In this document: piece after piece, positions 24,061-62,590 of the stretch | Layout of the letters: every line of letters begins with the position of its first letter | Numbering within the stretch: the first letter of the stretch is position 1 | Assembly (NCBI GenBank): GCA_031277095.1 | Contig: JAISLU010000084.1 | Location: 1-64,000, forward strand | Reading direction: 5' to 3' | Source: Synergistaceae bacterium | GTDB lineage: Bacteria > Synergistota > Synergistia > Synergistales > Aminobacteriaceae | Length of the DNA: 64,000 bases | Notes under the pieces: generated by a model | Seen by the model: the letters and a program-made list of their open reading frames with translations, nothing else | What the model was told of the DNA's origin: nothing | The model's database searches: none | Program-made: the position numbers and the translations under genes

Positions 24061-24990
24061 GATTTTATTCTCGATTTCGTTTTTGATTTCACTTTTGGCT
24101 TCATTCCAAAACGCGTCCAACTCTGACAGCGAACAGCCTTCCAACTGAAGGCCCCTATCCGACGCGGCCCGCTCCACTTTCCGGAACCGCTCCGCAAACT
24201 TGGCACAGGCCCGGGAAAGGGCTGCATCCGGGTTAACGTCCAAATGCCGGGCCAAGTTTACCGTCATAAAAAGCACGTCCCCCAGCTCGTCCTCCATCTC
24301 GTCGGCGGCGTTTGCCGCGACGGCCTCTTTCAGCTCCTCCACCTCTTCGCCCAACTTCTCGAAGAGAGGCTTCAAATCCCCTCGGGGCCAGTCGAAGCCC
24401 ACGTGAGCCGCTTTGCCCTGCATTCGATGGGCTTTCAACAAGGGAGGCAGACCTTTGGGGACTCCGGCCAGAATGGAAAGCTCTTCTTGTTTGTCTTTGC
24501 GTTCTCCCCGTTTTATGCGCTCCCAGTTGCGCAGTACCTGCCCGCTGTCCATTTCCGCTCCGTTTTCACCGAATACATGGGGGTGGCGGCGGATCAGCTT
24601 GTCGCAGAGGGCGCGCGCCACGTCTCGGATGTCGAACGCTCCCGCCTCTTTCGCGATGGAGGCCGCGAAAACAATCTGGAGCAGAAGATCCCCTGCCTCC
24701 TCGCGGACCTTGTCCATGCGCTCTTCTCTATGTTCTTCCGTAATGGCGTCCGCCAATTCGTAAGCCTCTTCGACGATGTAGGCGCGCAGGTCCGTGAGTT
24801 TCTGCTCCCTGTCCCAAGGACATCCTCCCGGCGCTCTCAGGCGCTCTATTATCTCGACCACCTCGTCGAAAAAATGAACTTCGCCGCAATCTTTCACATT
24901 GTCTTTCACTTGATTGTCTTTCGCTTCATTATCTTTCACTTCATCATCTTTCACTTCGTCTCGCACTTCGTCTTTCAGATCGTCTCTCAC
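24040..24990 (-). CDS. mazG: MazG-type nucleoside triphosphate pyrophosphohydrolase with repeat tails
   Basis: MazG hydrolyses NTPs and dNTPs to monophosphates, a housecleaning role. Two MazG domains are visible: one with APGGCPWDREQ, EEAYEL and EEAGDLLLQIVF, and a second with EEVEELKEAV and EDELGDVLFMTVNLARHL. Both acidic metal-binding sets are intact. The 316-residue protein has repeat-derived tails at both ends: residues 1-34 (DEVKDNEAKDN-type, 15-nt units) and about 300-316 (KNEIENKIKN-type). The GTG at 24990 is the start of the repeat and its ribosome binding site is distant, so the true start could lie inside the array. Confidence 0.9.
   Translation of the reverse strand: MRDDLKDEVRDEVKDDEVKDNEAKDNQVKDNVKDCGEVHFFDEVVEIIERLRAPGGCPWDREQKLTDLRAYIVEEAYELADAITEEHREERMDKVREEAGDLLLQIVFAASIAKEAGAFDIRDVARALCDKLIRRHPHVFGENGAEMDSGQVLRNWERIKRGERKDKQEELSILAGVPKGLPPLLKAHRMQGKAAHVGFDWPRGDLKPLFEKLGEEVEELKEAVAANAADEMEDELGDVLFMTVNLARHLDVNPDAALSRACAKFAERFRKVERAASDRGLQLEGCSLSELDAFWNEAKSEIKNEIENKIKNKVKH
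24889..24990 (-). repeat. Degenerate 15-nt repeat forming the N-terminus of MazG
   Basis: Six or seven units near GATAATGAAGTGAAA are read in frame and give an acidic/basic helix-prone tail. Confidence 0.85.
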
Positions 24991-25099
24991 AGTGAAAGTC
25001 TACACCTCCCGCCTGTGCCAGGGACACCGCTTTAAACGAAACATCGCCGATTATACAAATTCGCTCCCCGTAATCTTCTAATCTTCAAACTCTTCTTTA

Positions 25100-54470: not shown

Positions 54471-54522
54471 CGGTTCCCGTTGCAGCTTTCATTGATCAGC
54501 CTCTCCATCGAGCCCCTCCATC

Positions 54523-54570
54523 GAAGTCGAACTTGAAGTCGAACTTGAAGCTGAAATTGGAGCTGAAACC
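54523..54570 (+). repeat. Degenerate 12-nt repeat upstream of queH
   Basis: GAAGTCGAACTT occurs twice and is followed by diverged GAAGCTGAAATT and GGAGCTGAAACC units. Just upstream CTCCATCGAGCC is also duplicated. Confidence 0.85.
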
Positions 54571-56196: not shown

Positions 56197-58032
56197 ATGG
56201 GAAGTGCGGAACCGAAAGAACCCGGGCGGCCGGATTTTTTCAATGAGTATTGGAAGCGTTCGCGCCTTTGCGGACAAGTGGGAGAAGACGCGATCGGCGA
56301 GGAGATCAGAGTCAACGGTTGGGTCCGCAGAAGGCGCGACCTGGGGGGTATCCTATTTATCGAGCTGTGGGATCACTCCGGCCTCGTTCAAGTCGTCTTC
56401 AATCCCGATTTAAAACCCGACGCGCCCGACGTTCATCGCCGAGGGGGAGACCTGCGCAGCGAGTATTGCCTGGCGGTACGGGGCAAGGTGACCAGGCGTC
56501 CCGAGGGCACGGAAAATCCCGCGCTGGCCACCGGGAAAGTGGAAATCGTCGCGGAGGACTTTCTTCTGCTTTCCTCGTCGGAACCTTTGCCCTTCGAGGT
56601 GGGAGACGCCACGGACAAAGTCGACGAAAACCTCCGGCTGACCTATCGGTATCTCGACCTGCGCCGGGAGCGGATGCAGCACAACCTGCGAGTGCGCAGC
56701 AAACTTTACTCTTTCACCCGAAATTACCTGGAGAGCAACGCCTTCGTCGAGATCGAGACACCGATGCTGACGAAAGCGACGCCCGAGGGCGCCAGGGACT
56801 ACCTGGTCCCCAGCCGGGTCAACCCGGGAACTTTTTACGCGCTTCCCCAATCGCCGCAGCTTTTCAAACAAATTTTGATGATCAGTGGGTTCGATCGCTA
56901 TTATCAAATCGTCAAATGCTTCCGAGACGAGGATTTACGTGCCGACCGCCAGCCGGAGTTCACCCAGGTCGACCTGGAGATGAGCTACATCGTCGAAGAC
57001 GACGTCATGACCATGATCGAGGGCTACATGAAAGGGTTGTTCAAGACAATTCTCAGCGAGGACATCCCCACCCCCTTTCGCCGCGTGGACTATTGGGACG
57101 CCATCGACCTCTACGGCAGCGACAAACCGGACCTGCGCATTCCCCTGGAGCTTGTGGACCTGGGTCCCGTTTTTCGGGAGGCTTCCTTCGAGCCCTTTCG
57201 GAAAATTCTGGAAAACGGCGGCGTGGTTCGCGCCCTTCCCCTGCCCGGCGGCGCGTCTCTGTCCCGCAAAGAGATTTCGGATATCGAGGAAAAAACGAAA
57301 AAATGGGGCGCGTCGGGCCTGGGCGTCTTTCAGTGCAAAGAAAACGACCTGAAGGGACCGTTGGTCAAGTTCATGAACGAAGAGGAACGCGACCGCTTAA
57401 AAACCATCGGCGGCCTCAAAGATGGGGACGCGCTTTTCGTCGTGGCGGATTCTTCGCGGCTGAAAGCGTGTACGGTGCTGGGAACGCTGCGTCTCGAACT
57501 GGGCAAAACCCGGGGATTGATCGACGAAAGCGCCTGGAAATTTTTGTGGGTGGTCCATTTTCCCATGTTCGAGTGGAGCGAGGAAGAACGCCGATGGTCG
57601 GCGATGCACCATCCTTTCACGTCCCCCGTACTGGAGCAGCTCGATGGGATGGAGACGTCCCCGGGAAATATTTTGGCCCGCGCTTACGACGTGGTCCTGA
57701 ACGGCAACGAAGTGGGGGGAGGCTCCATCCGAATCCACGACTCGGCGGTACAGCGCAAGGTTTTTTCGCTCTTGGGTATCGGAGAAGAACAGGCGAGAGA
57801 GCGCTTCGGCTTTTTCCTGGACGCCCTTTCCTACGGCACGCCCCCTCATGGGGGTATCGCCTTGGGCGTGGATCGCCTGGCGATGCTTTTGTGCGGCGGG
57901 CAATCCATTCGGGACGTCATGGCTTTCCCGAAAACGCAAAAAGCCCAGTGCCTGCTCTCGAAGGCCCCCGACGTCGTGGAAGACGCGCGCCTGGCCGAAC
58001 TGCACATCGAATGTATTCCCGTCGAAGACTGA
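56197..58032 (+). CDS. aspS: Aspartyl-tRNA synthetase
   Basis: Class II synthetase charging tRNA-Asp. The 611-residue bacterial-type protein has an N-terminal OB fold (VNGWVRRRRDLGGILFIELWD), motif 1 around FVEIETPMLTKATPEGARDYLVPSR, motif 2 FRDEDLRADRQPEFTQVDLEM, the bacterial GAD insertion, and motif 3 GGIALGVDRLAMLLCG. The ATG at 56197 has AGGAGG seven bases upstream. Whether it also charges tRNA-Asn cannot be judged here. Confidence 0.96.
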   Translation: MGSAEPKEPGRPDFFNEYWKRSRLCGQVGEDAIGEEIRVNGWVRRRRDLGGILFIELWDHSGLVQVVFNPDLKPDAPDVHRRGGDLRSEYCLAVRGKVTRRPEGTENPALATGKVEIVAEDFLLLSSSEPLPFEVGDATDKVDENLRLTYRYLDLRRERMQHNLRVRSKLYSFTRNYLESNAFVEIETPMLTKATPEGARDYLVPSRVNPGTFYALPQSPQLFKQILMISGFDRYYQIVKCFRDEDLRADRQPEFTQVDLEMSYIVEDDVMTMIEGYMKGLFKTILSEDIPTPFRRVDYWDAIDLYGSDKPDLRIPLELVDLGPVFREASFEPFRKILENGGVVRALPLPGGASLSRKEISDIEEKTKKWGASGLGVFQCKENDLKGPLVKFMNEEERDRLKTIGGLKDGDALFVVADSSRLKACTVLGTLRLELGKTRGLIDESAWKFLWVVHFPMFEWSEEERRWSAMHHPFTSPVLEQLDGMETSPGNILARAYDVVLNGNEVGGGSIRIHDSAVQRKVFSLLGIGEEQARERFGFFLDALSYGTPPHGGIALGVDRLAMLLCGGQSIRDVMAFPKTQKAQCLLSKAPDVVEDARLAELHIECIPVED

Positions 58033-58092
58033 AAGCCGAAGCCGAAAGTCGAGGACTGAAAGTTGAAGCCTAAGCGCCGAGAACTGAAAGTT
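58024..58092. repeat. Degenerate repeat just after aspS
   Basis: GACTGAAAG-, GAAGCCGAAAG- and GTTGAAGCC-type units begin at the aspS stop codon and fill the short spacer. Confidence 0.75.
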
Positions 58093-58132: not shown

Positions 58133-59212
58133 ATGGATACACATTTCTCTCCCTCGTTCTCTCCTTTGGCGGGTGCGTCGCTTTCAGGGAATGGGGCCAG
58201 GTTGCAGATAGTTATCGCCCAGTCCGAACTGTTGATTCAGATGAAGCAGTTCGAACAGGCGCTGCATGAATTAGGAGTGGTCATCCAGGCAACCGAGGAC
58301 GACCGGGAACCATTTTGGGGGGGAAAATATACCGACGACGACGTCAGCGAATACCGCCATTTCGACAACCCCCGGGAACAGTCGCTGTACATGAAGCTGT
58401 GCCACCCGACCCGGCGGGTGGAGTCCGTTCCGGAAGATTACCCCCGTCTTTACGCGCTGTACGGTTTGGCCTGCATGGAGCTGAAACGGTACGGCGAGGC
58501 GAAGGCGGCCTTGCAAAAGTCCCTGCGTTGGAATCCCGTGAAAGTCGATACCCTTTGCATCCTGGCGGAACTCTGCAAAAGAAAGAAAAAGCCGGACGAA
58601 TATTTGGAAACCCTGAACGAATGTCTAGACTTCTCCTGCGCCCATGAAAATTCGGCGCAATGCTACCGTGACTTGGGTCGGTATTATGCCGAGGCTGGGG
58701 GCAAAAATACGGCAAAGTATCCTGACGGCATCCCGGCTGACCCGACGCCCGAAAACGCGGCTTCGGAGGTTCTGGAACTCATTGAGAACATGGAGTCGCT
58801 GAGAAAAAACATCGATACACTGGATGATTACCTGTCCCCGAATGCCGGACCGGAGGAGCATTCTTTCGCGGAGACGATCGTTTTTAGGGGGAAATGTTAC
58901 GTCGTCGTGGGCATCGACGAACACTCTTACATGTTTTATCCAAGCCGGTTCCTGGGCTATGAAAACAATTCGATGGCTCGGCATAAGAAGTGGATTCACT
59001 GCATCGATGGCCGGGAAACGAACAAGGCTATCACTAAAGTATTGAAAACCGAGCTCATAACCTCCGGCAAAAATCCCGATGAATGGAAGAGGCTGGAGCG
59101 TGCCTACGCCGCCTACTGCAGCTCCGTGAGTATCCCCGTCTCCCGAATGAAAAGAAAATATTGGCCCGCAATCGGCGGCAGCGATAGAGTAAAAAGTGAG
59201 CGAAAAGGGTGA
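58133..59212 (+). CDS. TPR-containing protein of unknown function
   Basis: I do not recognise this 359-residue protein. Helical repeats occur at about 45-170 (LYGLACMELKRYGEAKAALQKSLRWNP is a clear tetratricopeptide unit). The C-terminal part (VVVGIDEHSYMFYPSRFLGYENN followed by DGRETN) forms a compact domain with a PSRFxGY...DGRETN pattern that I associate, weakly, with nuclease- or DNA-linked proteins. The start ATG 58133 has no strong ribosome binding site; a TTG at 58100 is possible. It leads a three-gene rightward unit with an HTH protein and a helicase-protease. Confidence 0.6.
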   Translation: MDTHFSPSFSPLAGASLSGNGARLQIVIAQSELLIQMKQFEQALHELGVVIQATEDDREPFWGGKYTDDDVSEYRHFDNPREQSLYMKLCHPTRRVESVPEDYPRLYALYGLACMELKRYGEAKAALQKSLRWNPVKVDTLCILAELCKRKKKPDEYLETLNECLDFSCAHENSAQCYRDLGRYYAEAGGKNTAKYPDGIPADPTPENAASEVLELIENMESLRKNIDTLDDYLSPNAGPEEHSFAETIVFRGKCYVVVGIDEHSYMFYPSRFLGYENNSMARHKKWIHCIDGRETNKAITKVLKTELITSGKNPDEWKRLERAYAAYCSSVSIPVSRMKRKYWPAIGGSDRVKSERKG

Positions 59213-59249
59213 TTTTCGACGCGGATAGGGTTAATCAAATGGGGTCATA

Positions 59250-59310
59250 TAAAGATGGAGTTTTCGGTATAGTGGTGGATTTTTTGATACGGTGGTGGAT
59301 TTTTCAATAT
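59250..59310. repeat. Degenerate repeat upstream of the HTH gene
   Basis: TATAGTGGTGGATTTTTTGA, then TACGGTGGTGGATTTTTCAA, then TATGGTG: two and a third copies of a 20-nt unit; the last gives the start codon region. Confidence 0.85.
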
Positions 59311-59779
59311 GGTGAACGAAGGGGAATTCAGAAACAGACATTTTGAGACCAGAGGTATCCTCGAATTCCTGACTCGAGTGGCCGCCGGGTATAAATGGCA
59401 GCAAGATCGGCGAGAATTGGTCCATTCCATGTCGCGGATGCTGGAGGTTGTCCTGCAGGCCCGAAGGGAAAGGGGGGAGAAATCGCCGTCCATAGAGCGC
59501 ACGGTCGCGGACCAATGCGACATCCCCTATAACACCTATAAAAAATACATGGGACTGAAACGCCCAGTCACCCGCGTCGCCATCGCGAAGTTCGCGGTGG
59601 GCCTCCACCTGTCTCTGGACGACGCCAACCGACTGTTTCGCCTCCAGGGCGGCGAGCTGAACGAAACCAATGATTTCGACTACATCACCCTCCATGCCTT
59701 GAGGGACAAGGACAATGTCCAGGATTTTCTGGAGGAAGTAGAGAAATACACCGCAGTCAATACTCATCGTGCCCTTTAG
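59309..59779 (+). CDS. Small helix-turn-helix (XRE-like) protein
   Basis: A 156-residue protein. Residues about 65-120 fit an XRE-type helix-turn-helix (VADQCDIPYNTYKKYMGLKRPVTRVAIAKFAVGLHLSLDDANRLFRLQG), followed by FDYITLHALRDKDNVQDFLEEVEKY, a tail common in small phage- or defence-linked regulators of anaerobes. The upstream spacer carries GGTGGATTTTT duplications, one of which supplies the context of the ATG. The gene ends just before a hairpin at 59814-59840. It is probably the regulator of the neighbouring helicase-protease. Confidence 0.65.
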   Translation: MVNEGEFRNRHFETRGILEFLTRVAAGYKWQQDRRELVHSMSRMLEVVLQARRERGEKSPSIERTVADQCDIPYNTYKKYMGLKRPVTRVAIAKFAVGLHLSLDDANRLFRLQGGELNETNDFDYITLHALRDKDNVQDFLEEVEKYTAVNTHRAL

Positions 59780-59813
59780 ACCGGGCATCGGGGCAATTTT
59801 ACAGTACCGAATT

Positions 59814-59840
59814 GGGGGACAAGTTGTCCCTTATTTTTTT
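59814..59840 (+). terminator. Hairpin with T-tract between the HTH and helicase genes
   Basis: GGGACAA-G-TTGTCCC (59816-59830) followed by TTATTTTTTT. It fits a Rho-independent terminator, though with a 1-nt spacer it is also a perfect dyad that an HTH protein could bind. Confidence 0.6.
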
Positions 59841-59908
59841 CACGAAAAATAATTATGATTTACCCTATACGGCATCATAATCTATGACAAAAGGAGGCAC
59901 AAACCCAA

Positions 59909-62590
59909 ATGGAACAATCTACGTTTACCTGGGCAAACTTCGACACGGATTTTCTTCTCGCTGTCCTCAACAGCGGAAAAGCGCCGGCCGAGTGCAAGCC
60001 GTCGCTGAATAGCGACGATCCCAATATACTGGCGACCGGCCTGAACCTGTACTACCCTAAACCCACCCCGGACTTTGTGAAGTTGTTCAAACCGGAGATC
60101 GGACAGTATTTTTTCGGAAAATACTCCAGTAAACTCCGGGAGGTTCTGGAAACAGGGGAAGATTCGAAAGATACGGAAACGGCCTGCCTGCTGGACCAAT
60201 TTGCCCGGCAGCCCATGACGGCGGACAGGGTGAACAAGGTCGTCGCCGCTCTCTTAGGCGTTGGCAGCGGAGTCGACGAGCTTCCGCCTCGTTTCTCCCA
60301 AAGACCCGACCCGGTAAATCTGCGCGACAGCAGCGTGAATGATTTTCCGCTCTTTACGTTTCAAAGAGAGGCGGTGAGCGCGTTACAGAAAGCCTTTTTG
60401 CAGGGAGACAGAAAAAGCGGCCTGCTGGTGATGCCTACGGGCAGCGGAAAAACCATGACCACCGCGTACTTCCTGCTGCGTTACATGATCCCCGCGGGCT
60501 ATCAGGTGGTATGGCTGGCGCACCGTCATCTTCTGTTGGATCAGGCGGCGGGCGCGTTTTACGACAACTGCCCTCTCATCAAGCTGACCGACCCCACTAG
60601 GGAACGCTTTCAACTGGTGTGCGTCTCCGGAGAACACGAGAGCATTAAAAGCGTAGAGCGGGACGACGACGTGATCCTTCTGTCCGTGCAGTCGGTTTTC
60701 CGCAACTTGGAGTACCTGAAGCCGGTTTTGAGGGACAAACTCGTCATCGTCGTGGACGAGGCGCACCACACCATCGCGAAGACCTACCTCGAGACGATAC
60801 GCTTCATTCAAGGGCGCAACGAGAACGCTAAACTTCTGGGGCTGACGGCCACGCCAATCAAAGGACACATCAATAAAGACAACAAAGACAGCGTTCCCAA
60901 CAAGGAAACGGCTTACCTGCAAAAAATTTTTACCTGGCCTCCGATTTACGACATTTCGATCGGTACGCTCACCGCAAATGGAACCCTGGCGAAACCCCAG
61001 GTGGAACACGTGGAAACGGGAGAAAATTTCGAGTCGTCCATCACACCCTACGAGGCCAGGCAAATGGCCCAATTGTACAATATACCCGAGTCTCTGGCGA
61101 AAAAAATAGCGGACTCGAAAAAGCGCAACGCCCTCATTGTCGAACACTACATGAAGAACCGCGACCGGTACAAAAAAACGCTCATCTTTGCCCTGAATAC
61201 CGTCCACGCCAGAACGCTGCACGAAGACCTGGTGAATCGGGGGGTACGCTGCGGGTGCGTCTACAGCGACAACCCCAAAAATGCGTGTATCATCAAAAAA
61301 TTTACGAACAACGAATTGGACGTTCTGGTCAACATCAACATCATGACGGAGGGCAGCGACGTCCCCGACATTCAGACCGTCATGCTCACCCGCCCGACGG
61401 GAAGCGACGTCTTGTTGATGCAGATGATCGGCCGCAGCCTGCGAGGCACCGCCGTCGGGGGGACAAAAATCGCCACCATCGTCGACTTCCACGACCATTG
61501 GGATCGTTACAATTATTGGATCAACCCGGAGTGGCTGGTGGGCCCCGAAGTGCCCGAGCCGGATAAGCGGTCGGGGACGCGGAGGGAACCGCCCGAACTC
61601 TATCCCTGGCTCGATGTACGAACCGCTTACGACAGCATAAGCAGCCAATGCGGCCAATTCGACAGCTTCGTTGCCATGCCCTACGGCTGGTACAGCCTGG
61701 TGAACGACGGCGAGGACTACACGCTGCTCGTGTTCGAGGACCAGGTGGAGGGGTATGAGAGACTTATCGCCGACGCTCCCTCTCCCTCTCCCTCTCCCTC
61801 TCCCTATTCCTTCCAAGGGCTGGCGGAGAAATATTTCGGCGGTTTTTGCCTGAAGCCCTCCGAAAAAGATTTGAAGATTTTCCTGGACAACTTGCGCAGC
61901 GAGGACCCGCCGGCGCTGTTTCTGTTCGGCGACCGGGACGAAGTGGACCCGTGGCGGGTGGCGAAAAAGATACTCGAAGAAAACCTGAACGTGATGACAT
62001 ACCCGGCCGAACTGTACGCCCGGTACCCCGTCATCGAAAATCTGTTCGGCAATCTGGAAAATTACCGGGACAGAGTTTTTTACATCATGAATCACAAAGG
62101 GCAGCCTCTGGGCTGCACGGTCGTCTCTCTGGAGACGGAGCGGCTTCCCTTTGTCATCGATGGGGCCTACGACGTGAAACAACTGATGGGAGAGGTCATC
62201 GACGAACTGTTCACCGGACGGAACCCCGACATCCGCTCCATACGCTGGACGGACAGACCCTACCGGAGCTATTACGGCATGTTCTACCCAGCGAAAGCAG
62301 AGGACGGGAGGTTTGTGGGAGACGTCGCGATCAACCTGCTGCTGAACTCCTCTCAGGTGCCCCGCGAGGTGGTCAAGTACGTCATCTACCACGAGCTGCT
62401 CCATCGGGATTATCCGAGGCACGACCCCAAGTTCAGGGAGATGGAGCATAAATATCCCAACTACGTGGAGTGGGAGCGTTTTTTGGATTACCGCCTGCCG
62501 AGGTTTTACGATTTTCCATATTGGGACGACTCCAACCGCGTGGCTGTCGAACAGGTCCGCAGCGCCGTCGAGTCGCAGGTTGGCCGGTAA
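59909..62590 (+). CDS. SF2 DEAD/DEAH helicase fused to a SprT/YgjP-like zinc metalloprotease
   Basis: An 893-residue two-enzyme fusion. Residues 1-145 are an uncharacterised N-terminal part. The helicase has motif I MPTGSGKT 175-182, motif II DEAH 283-286, motif III GLTATP 311-316 and motif VI QMIGRSLRG 505-513, closest in style to RadD/type-III-restriction-like helicases. After a linker with a (SP)4 run (625-632, six-nt repeats) comes a C-terminal domain about 690-870: IRW...RSYYGMF, VGDVAINLLLNS, then YHELLHRDYPRHDPKF, giving zinc ligands H828, H832 and probably H838 with catalytic E829. SprT-like proteases cleave DNA-bound proteins. Ribosome binding site AGGAGG lies before ATG 59909. Confidence 0.85.
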   Translation: MEQSTFTWANFDTDFLLAVLNSGKAPAECKPSLNSDDPNILATGLNLYYPKPTPDFVKLFKPEIGQYFFGKYSSKLREVLETGEDSKDTETACLLDQFARQPMTADRVNKVVAALLGVGSGVDELPPRFSQRPDPVNLRDSSVNDFPLFTFQREAVSALQKAFLQGDRKSGLLVMPTGSGKTMTTAYFLLRYMIPAGYQVVWLAHRHLLLDQAAGAFYDNCPLIKLTDPTRERFQLVCVSGEHESIKSVERDDDVILLSVQSVFRNLEYLKPVLRDKLVIVVDEAHHTIAKTYLETIRFIQGRNENAKLLGLTATPIKGHINKDNKDSVPNKETAYLQKIFTWPPIYDISIGTLTANGTLAKPQVEHVETGENFESSITPYEARQMAQLYNIPESLAKKIADSKKRNALIVEHYMKNRDRYKKTLIFALNTVHARTLHEDLVNRGVRCGCVYSDNPKNACIIKKFTNNELDVLVNINIMTEGSDVPDIQTVMLTRPTGSDVLLMQMIGRSLRGTAVGGTKIATIVDFHDHWDRYNYWINPEWLVGPEVPEPDKRSGTRREPPELYPWLDVRTAYDSISSQCGQFDSFVAMPYGWYSLVNDGEDYTLLVFEDQVEGYERLIADAPSPSPSPSPYSFQGLAEKYFGGFCLKPSEKDLKIFLDNLRSEDPPALFLFGDRDEVDPWRVAKKILEENLNVMTYPAELYARYPVIENLFGNLENYRDRVFYIMNHKGQPLGCTVVSLETERLPFVIDGAYDVKQLMGEVIDELFTGRNPDIRSIRWTDRPYRSYYGMFYPAKAEDGRFVGDVAINLLLNSSQVPREVVKYVIYHELLHRDYPRHDPKFREMEHKYPNYVEWERFLDYRLPRFYDFPYWDDSNRVAVEQVRSAVESQVGR
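61776..61805 (+). repeat. 6-nt tandem repeat in the helicase-protease gene
   Basis: Five copies of CTCCCT, perfect, encode Ser-Pro pairs in the linker between the helicase and the later domains. Copy number could vary without frameshift. Confidence 0.9.

What the first reader, a model, noticed from the sequence alone, without database searches (positions are those of the whole stretch)
58133..62590. Helicase fused to a SprT/YgjP-like metalloprotease, in a unit with an HTH protein and a TPR protein
A single 893-residue protein joins a complete SF2 helicase (motifs at 175-182, 283-286, 311-316, 505-513) with a C-terminal HELLH...H zinc protease signature at 828-838. SprT-like proteases (SPRTN, Wss1) digest proteins crosslinked to DNA, so one polypeptide could unwind DNA and remove bound proteins. 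A small HTH protein and a TPR protein with a PSRFxGY...DGRETN pattern precede it between aspS and rplS, a housekeeping junction where an accessory unit has likely inserted. I can name no described system with this composition. Roles: DNA-protein crosslink repair, or anti-phage attack on protein-primed or protein-coated DNA.
Basis: partly seen in the sequence, partly recalled or inferred. Interest (0 to 1): 0.8.

Follow-up and report, generated by a model that had tools for sequence, protein, structure and literature searches.

The report
DNA motor fused to a zinc protease
A gut-type bacterium carries a single protein that joins a DNA-tracking motor of the kind used in restriction systems to a small zinc protease; near relatives in Deinococcus carry a DNA-cutting domain at the same place, so this is probably a defence-like system that attacks proteins rather than DNA, although that activity is untested.

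Summary
The 893-aa ORF (59909-62590) has a complete SF2 motor, and its C-terminal HELLH...H domain is a genuine minigluzincin: it passes Pfam's YgjP-like cut-off, folds confidently (pLDDT 82), matches selecase, SPRTN and Wss1 structures, and evolves as conservatively as the helicase. The fusion is rare, in 3 of 188 Synergistota genomes. Relatives of the TPR and HTH proteins were found at usable strength only beside it (TPR in 2 genomes, HTH in 2), never all three outside this window.

Two findings change the interpretation. (1) Deinococcus plasmid proteins share the motor and middle region but end in an HNH nuclease, so the protease occupies what looks like an effector slot. (2) Stand-alone YgjP genes often follow hsdR of type I restriction systems (14 of 30 Synergistota loci, viral contigs, plasmids). 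The TPR protein's C-terminal domain is the N-terminal domain of some HNH endonucleases, probably a DNA reader.

Best reading: a restriction-like defence unit whose motor delivers a protease. The main rival is CapP/CapH-like cleavage of the neighbouring HTH repressor. Crosslink repair is less likely. The 'housekeeping junction' claim is weak: aspS and rplS are not adjacent in close relatives.

The parts
58133..59212 (+). TPR protein, 359 aa; residues about 1-200 TPR, 213-344 a PSRFxGY...GRxTN domain shared with N-termini of HNH endonucleases
   Evidence: Pfam TPR_8 E=1.4e-8; homologous to a TPR gene beside the fusion in G095/L023, 43% identity; C-terminal domain matches Acinetobacter and Pontibacillus HNH proteins, E 1e-6 to 4e-5
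59256..59314 (.). three 20-bp tandem repeats (TGGATTTTTCGATATGGTGG) just upstream of and into the HTH gene; possible operator
   Evidence: tandem repeat finder score 76; function inferred
59309..59779 (+). small HTH-like protein, 156 aa
   Evidence: no Pfam match; weak MerR/RstR profile hits; 73% identical homologue directly upstream of the fusion in G104; weak relation to an HTH-like protein beside a kinase gene in G164
59815..59832 (+). GGGACAAGTTGTCCC palindrome plus T-run between HTH and fusion genes; terminator-like or operator, partly conserved in G104
   Evidence: terminator-like site; L022 has GGGGTACAAATTGTCCC at the same place
59852..59881 (.). ATTATGAT/ATCATAAT inverted repeat in the presumed promoter of the fusion gene
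   Evidence: not conserved in L022
59909..62590 (+). SF2 motor fused to minigluzincin protease, 893 aa
59909..60313 (+). N-terminal domain, residues 1-135, no family match; shared only with G104
60314..61543 (+). SF2 helicase core, residues 136-545, nearest named kin RadD, PbeA, EcoAI HsdR and SauUSI motors
61544..62110 (+). middle region, residues 546-734, shared with Deinococcus SF2-HNH proteins
   Evidence: alignment with L021 and L041
62111..62533 (+). minigluzincin (YgjP/SprT-like) protease domain, residues 735-875; H828, E829, H832, H838
   Evidence: Pfam YgjP-like 36.1 bits against cut-off 26; AF2 pLDDT 81.9, pTM 0.80; Foldseek selecase, SPRTN, jannalysin, Wss1; dN/dS about 0.17

Best explanation
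A rare accessory defence-like unit built on a restriction-type SF2 DNA motor in which the usual nuclease is replaced by a minigluzincin protease. Proposed mechanism: (a) the TPR protein's C-terminal domain, of the kind found in HNH endonucleases, or the motor itself recognises foreign or aberrant DNA; (b) the SF2 core engages and translocates on it; (c) engagement brings or activates the C-terminal zinc protease next to proteins on that DNA (phage replication, packaging, terminal or coat proteins) and cuts them; (d) the HTH protein keeps expression low. Shown here: domain composition, intact catalytic residues under purifying selection, patchy occurrence, partner co-occurrence, the HNH-for-protease difference between homologues, and the recurrent YgjP-hsdR gene linkage. 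Inferred: defence role, DNA-coupled proteolysis, substrate identity, HTH regulation, TPR recognition.
For: Complete SF2 core whose nearest named profiles are RadD, PbeA, EcoAI HsdR and SauUSI-type motors. Deinococcus radiodurans and D. actinosclerus plasmid proteins align through the motor and the following middle region and then carry HNH (PF01844 E=2.5e-12 in D. radiodurans) instead of the protease. Protease fold confident and matching selecase, SPRTN, jannalysin and Wss1; dN/dS of that domain about 0.17 against 0.13 for the helicase and 0.29 for the middle region. Fusion in 3 of 188 Synergistota genomes at different loci; TPR found in only 2 genomes (plus one very weak hit) and HTH in only 2 (plus one weak hit), always next to the fusion. 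YgjP directly after hsdR: 4 of 4 first hits, 14 of 30 best Synergistota loci, viral contigs L105, L106 (L107 is a duplicate) and L108, and plasmids of E. coli, Rhodococcus and Pseudomonas. The EPEC island with type I RM, DarTG and an M48 metallopeptidase gene protects against phage (PMC12255303). TPR C-terminal domain is the N-terminal half of HNH_2 endonucleases encoded beside xseAB on Acinetobacter plasmids.
Against: No anti-phage test exists for any member. No methyltransferase or specificity gene is present, so self/non-self discrimination is unexplained. The unit is not in a visible defence island: its flanks are housekeeping genes. Only three members are known, so co-occurrence counts are small, phylogenetically non-independent, and no second genome has all three genes: HTH is missing beside the G095 fusion, and no separate TPR gene was found beside the G104 fusion (the contig ends just downstream). 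The window's protease domain is only distantly related to the hsdR-linked YgjP proteins (19-23% identity). 16 of 30 Synergistota YgjP loci showed no hsdR within about 1.5 kb. The M48 gene of the EPEC island was not shown to be needed for protection in what I read, and I did not test whether it is YgjP-like.
Confidence: 0.42

Rival explanations
1. DNA-sensing regulator: when the motor engages invading or damaged DNA, the protease cuts the adjacent HTH repressor and derepresses the unit, as CapP cuts CapH and PprI/IrrE cuts DdrO in response to single-stranded DNA.
For: HTH gene directly upstream in G000 and G104 and found only there (plus one weak hit) in 188 genomes; palindrome and repeats around both promoters; published precedent for DNA-activated metallopeptidase plus HTH (PMC10904395; PMC13373217). 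hsdR-ygjP operons also carry a further HExxH protein, one with a C-terminal HTH match.
Against: The G095 fusion has no HTH neighbour. CapP and IrrE are ImmA/IrrE-type peptidases, a different zincin family. A regulator alone would leave the unit without an effector.
Confidence: 0.22
2. DNA-protein crosslink repair: the motor tracks DNA and the SprT-like domain removes crosslinked proteins, as SPRTN and Wss1 do.
For: Predicted fold matches SPRTN (6mdx, Foldseek probability 1.00) and Wss1; the motor scores best in NCBIfam to the repair helicase RadD, though far below its cut-off.
Against: Present in 3 of 188 genomes at unrelated loci, unlike a core repair gene; homologues replace the protease by HNH; related YgjP genes are linked to restriction operons.
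Confidence: 0.14
3. Self-control of a restriction-type motor: the protease limits the motor's own activity or clears stalled complexes from host DNA, analogous to ClpXP-mediated restriction alleviation of HsdR.
For: YgjP genes overlap or abut hsdR, suggesting the protease serves the motor; ClpXP degrades translocating EcoKI HsdR (cited in PMC12255303).
Against: In the fusion there is no separate nuclease to restrain; no evidence of autoproteolysis.
Confidence: 0.1
4. Chance or remnant: an unrelated protease domain fused to a helicase without a joint function.
For: Few members are known.
Against: Fusion retained across 36-71% identity with all catalytic residues and dN/dS about 0.17 in the protease domain.
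Confidence: 0.05

Closest known systems
Deinococcus SF2-HNH plasmid proteins (WP_027479745, AWT37349; no assigned function)
   Same: Same motor and middle region over about 470 residues at 32-33% identity, similar length
   Different: C-terminal HNH nuclease instead of protease; neighbours differ
Type I restriction hsdR-ygjP operons, including plasmid and viral copies
   Same: SF2 restriction motor encoded with a YgjP-family minigluzincin
   Different: Two separate genes, HsdR has an N-terminal nuclease domain, HsdS and in places HsdM present where the locus was read far enough
SPRTN / Wss1 DNA-protein-crosslink proteases
   Same: Predicted minigluzincin fold with HExxH
   Different: No helicase fusion; SPRTN and Wss1 have other DNA- and ubiquitin/SUMO-binding parts (own knowledge)
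RadD / YejH repair helicase
   Same: SF2 core, best NCBIfam score
   Different: 110 bits against cut-off 720; no protease
SauUSI type IV restriction enzyme
   Same: SF2 motor, top PDB sequence hit (7clg)
   Different: No nuclease domain recognised in the window protein; match limited to part of the motor
CapP/CapH and PprI/DdrO
   Same: Metallopeptidase paired with an HTH protein
   Different: ImmA/IrrE-type peptidase, no motor; cleavage of the window HTH untested
EPEC RRDM defence island
   Same: Restriction motor genes and an M48 metallopeptidase gene in one anti-phage locus
   Different: Separate genes, with DarTG and RptR; relation of its M48 protein to YgjP not tested

Membership tests
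YgjP-like metallopeptidase (PF01863) | profile score above curated cut-off | tested here: met
   36.1 bits for the domain, cut-off 26; G095 member only 12.8 bits
YgjP-like metallopeptidase (PF01863) | HExxH plus third His five residues on | tested here: met
   H828 E829 H832 H838; the G095 member has one extra residue before the third His
YgjP-like metallopeptidase (PF01863) | N-terminal three quarters of the profile | tested here: not met
   only profile positions 151-205 of 207 match
Minigluzincin fold | alpha-beta-beta-beta-alpha(HExxH) core like selecase, SPRTN, Wss1 | tested here: met
   AF2 pLDDT 81.9, Foldseek first ten hits all minigluzincins; the alignment included viral YgjP rows; a 3-row model of the larger region was inconclusive
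SPRTN/Wss1 DPC protease | proteolysis of crosslinked protein on DNA | not testable with these tools
   needs biochemistry
SF2 helicase | Walker A, DEAH, motifs III and VI | tested here: met
RadD | NCBIfam equivalog cut-off | tested here: not met
   110.2 against 720
Type I HsdR | HSDR_N nuclease domain and HsdM/HsdS neighbours | tested here: not met
   no HSDR_N hit in the window protein; neighbours are TPR, HTH, aspS, rplS
SauUSI-type type IV enzyme | PLD nuclease and SRA-like domains | tested here: not met
   no such Pfam hits
Known PADLOC defence system | specific full-length model match plus partners | tested here: not met
   only motor-region hits (PbeA, mREase_IV); TPR and HTH none
CapP/CapH | ImmA/IrrE-type peptidase | tested here: not met
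   Pfam finds YgjP-like and no ImmA/IrrE (M78) match
CapP/CapH | DNA-stimulated cleavage of partner HTH | not testable with these tools
   needs biochemistry

The most novel reading that the evidence does not exclude
A restriction-like immune system in which a DNA-translocating motor delivers a protease instead of a nuclease: it recognises foreign DNA and destroys the proteins on it. Type I restriction systems with a linked ygjP gene would use the same principle in two-gene form.
Probability: 0.25. Interest if true: 0.9.

Novelty: new variant of a known kind. Interest (0 to 1): 0.6.

Why it matters
YgjP metallopeptidases are widespread and often encoded with restriction motors, and the literature searched here gave no function for them in that setting. 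A natural single-chain fusion, together with a homologue carrying a nuclease at the same place, makes 'does a restriction motor use proteolysis as an effector?' directly testable with one protein and two point mutants.

Tried and rejected
AF2 of residues 561-876 with three sequences was low confidence and its Foldseek search meaningless; a domain-only alignment solved this. IMG/VR scans with the protease-middle region and with the full protein found nothing; a family alignment returned 80 generic SF2 helicases, none with a protease tail of this kind. Plasmid and phage tblastn with the C-terminal region found only distant stand-alone SprT/M48 proteins. HTH search in plasmids and TPR-domain search in phages: no match. 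aspS-rplS as an ancestral junction: rejected for close relatives; one more distant genome, G065, has a contig-end aspS fragment next to rplS. Foreign base composition as evidence of insertion: GC and GC3 of the unit do not stand out. Literature searches for a YgjP/type I restriction function gave none.
Full report
WHAT IS THERE. The fusion has all SF2 motifs and Pfam ResIII (E=1.4e-23), Helicase_C (2.3e-12) and YgjP-like (1.2e-7, above cut-off). The window comes from a Synergistaceae-type genome (G000); the relatives found by name are Synergistaceae MAGs.

IS THE PROTEASE REAL. HELLH with E829 and the third ligand H838 is kept in homologues at 71% (G104, L002/L022) and 36% (G095, L003/L023) identity. 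The motif appears in 5 of 20000 shuffles. Residues 735-875 alone score 36.1 bits to YgjP-like, cut-off 26. With viral YgjP proteins in the alignment AF2 gave pLDDT 81.9 and pTM 0.80, with helix, three strands, HExxH helix and two further helices. Foldseek's first ten PDB hits are selecase, SPRTN (6mdx), jannalysin and Wss1, and the same alignment as a profile finds selecase, projannalysin, proabylysin and Wss1 by sequence. The viral rows could bias the model; the earlier three-sequence model of a larger region was uninformative. Between window and G104, dN/dS is about 0.17 in this domain, 0.13 in the helicase and 0.29 in the middle region, so the protease is maintained.

DISTRIBUTION. Of 188 Synergistota genomes, 3 encode the fusion. 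The TPR protein is found in G000 and G095 (a third, very weak hit aside), both next to the fusion: upstream in G000, 212 bp downstream in G095. The HTH protein is found in G000 and G104, both directly upstream of the fusion, plus a weak relative in G164. No second genome has all three. G104 carries Sel1 repeats and G095 TPR repeats fused at the C-terminus of the helicase protein. The loci differ: G000 aspS-unit-rplS; G104 next to an XRE-type HTH gene and an lspA-like gene; G095 on a contig with an S24-type repressor-like gene. In G095 rplS is followed by other genes and aspS is on another contig. The unit is therefore accessory, but its insertion between originally adjacent aspS and rplS is not shown.

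WHAT THE RELATIVES SAY. Two Deinococcus plasmid proteins align with the fusion through the motor and the following middle region and then end in HNH. The protease therefore stands where a homologue has a nuclease. Independently, stand-alone YgjP genes follow hsdR in the same orientation: all four first Synergistota hits, 14 of 30 best-scoring loci of the family search, IMG/VR contigs L105, L106 (L107 is a duplicate) and L108, and plasmids of E. coli, Rhodococcus and Pseudomonas, with further overlaps in the list. The upstream protein in G086 is a true HsdR (HSDR_N, SWI2_SNF2, T1R_D3). An EPEC anti-phage island contains type I RM, DarTG and an M48 metallopeptidase gene (PMC12255303); the role of that gene there was not resolved in what I read, and its relation to YgjP was not tested. 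The TPR protein's residues 213-344 are homologous to the N-terminal domain of HNH_2 endonucleases of Acinetobacter and Pontibacillus plasmids, beside xseAB in the former. That suggests a recognition domain; inference.

HOW IT PROBABLY WORKS. Motor engages DNA, possibly guided by the TPR reader; the protease, tethered to the motor, cuts proteins on that DNA; the HTH protein represses. Confidence 0.42 for a restriction-like defence role with protease effector. Rivals: CapP/CapH-like cleavage of the HTH repressor, supported by gene order, by a palindrome (59815-59832) partly conserved in G104 and by published DNA-activated metallopeptidase-HTH pairs (PMC10904395; PMC13373217); crosslink repair; self-limitation of the motor.

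MEMBERSHIP. It is a minigluzincin and an SF2 protein. It is not RadD, not HsdR, not a SauUSI-type enzyme and not a PADLOC system by the tests run. CapP membership fails on peptidase family, although a CapP-like logic remains possible.

LIMITS. Only three members, one genome-contig scan with narrow patterns, no metagenome search, no experiment. The hsdR count covers only the 30 best-scoring YgjP loci and about 1.5 kb of flank, which truncates or hides some neighbours.

Noticed in passing
L053 2755-3603; L105 5671-7311; L106 3945-5621; L108 5112-6698; L109 710-2308: Downstream of ygjP in these loci (hsdR-ygjP operons where the upstream side is readable) lies another conserved HExxH protein (HEALHWEK); the L108 copy has a C-terminal HTH match. 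These operons may carry two metallopeptidases.
   Followed up: partly
L037 4496-6825 and L039 2202-4550: Acinetobacter plasmids encode xseA, xseB and an HNH_2 endonuclease whose N-terminal PSRFxGY domain is homologous to the window TPR protein's C-terminal domain; possibly an uncharacterised defence cluster.
   Followed up: partly
window 61776-61805: Perfect hexanucleotide repeat (CTCCCT)x5 inside the fusion gene coding SPSPSPSPSP in the middle region; absent in G104. Changes of unit number would keep the frame.
   Followed up: no
window, mostly intergenic, e.g. 58021-58092, 54498-54568, 24897-24991: Many short degenerate tandem repeats with 12-15 bp periods, often between genes; origin unknown.
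   Followed up: no
L029 1513-2292 and 1960-3015: Weak relative of the window HTH protein in another Synergistota genome, opposite a Ser/Thr-kinase-like gene; similar proteins occur in Listeria plasmid-collection records.
   Followed up: partly
L042 4653-9824: Mesorhizobium plasmid with an SF2 helicase related to the window motor, followed by an ATP-binding protein, a phospholipase-D-like protein and an opposite PAPS-reductase-family gene; looks like a defence cluster.
   Followed up: no
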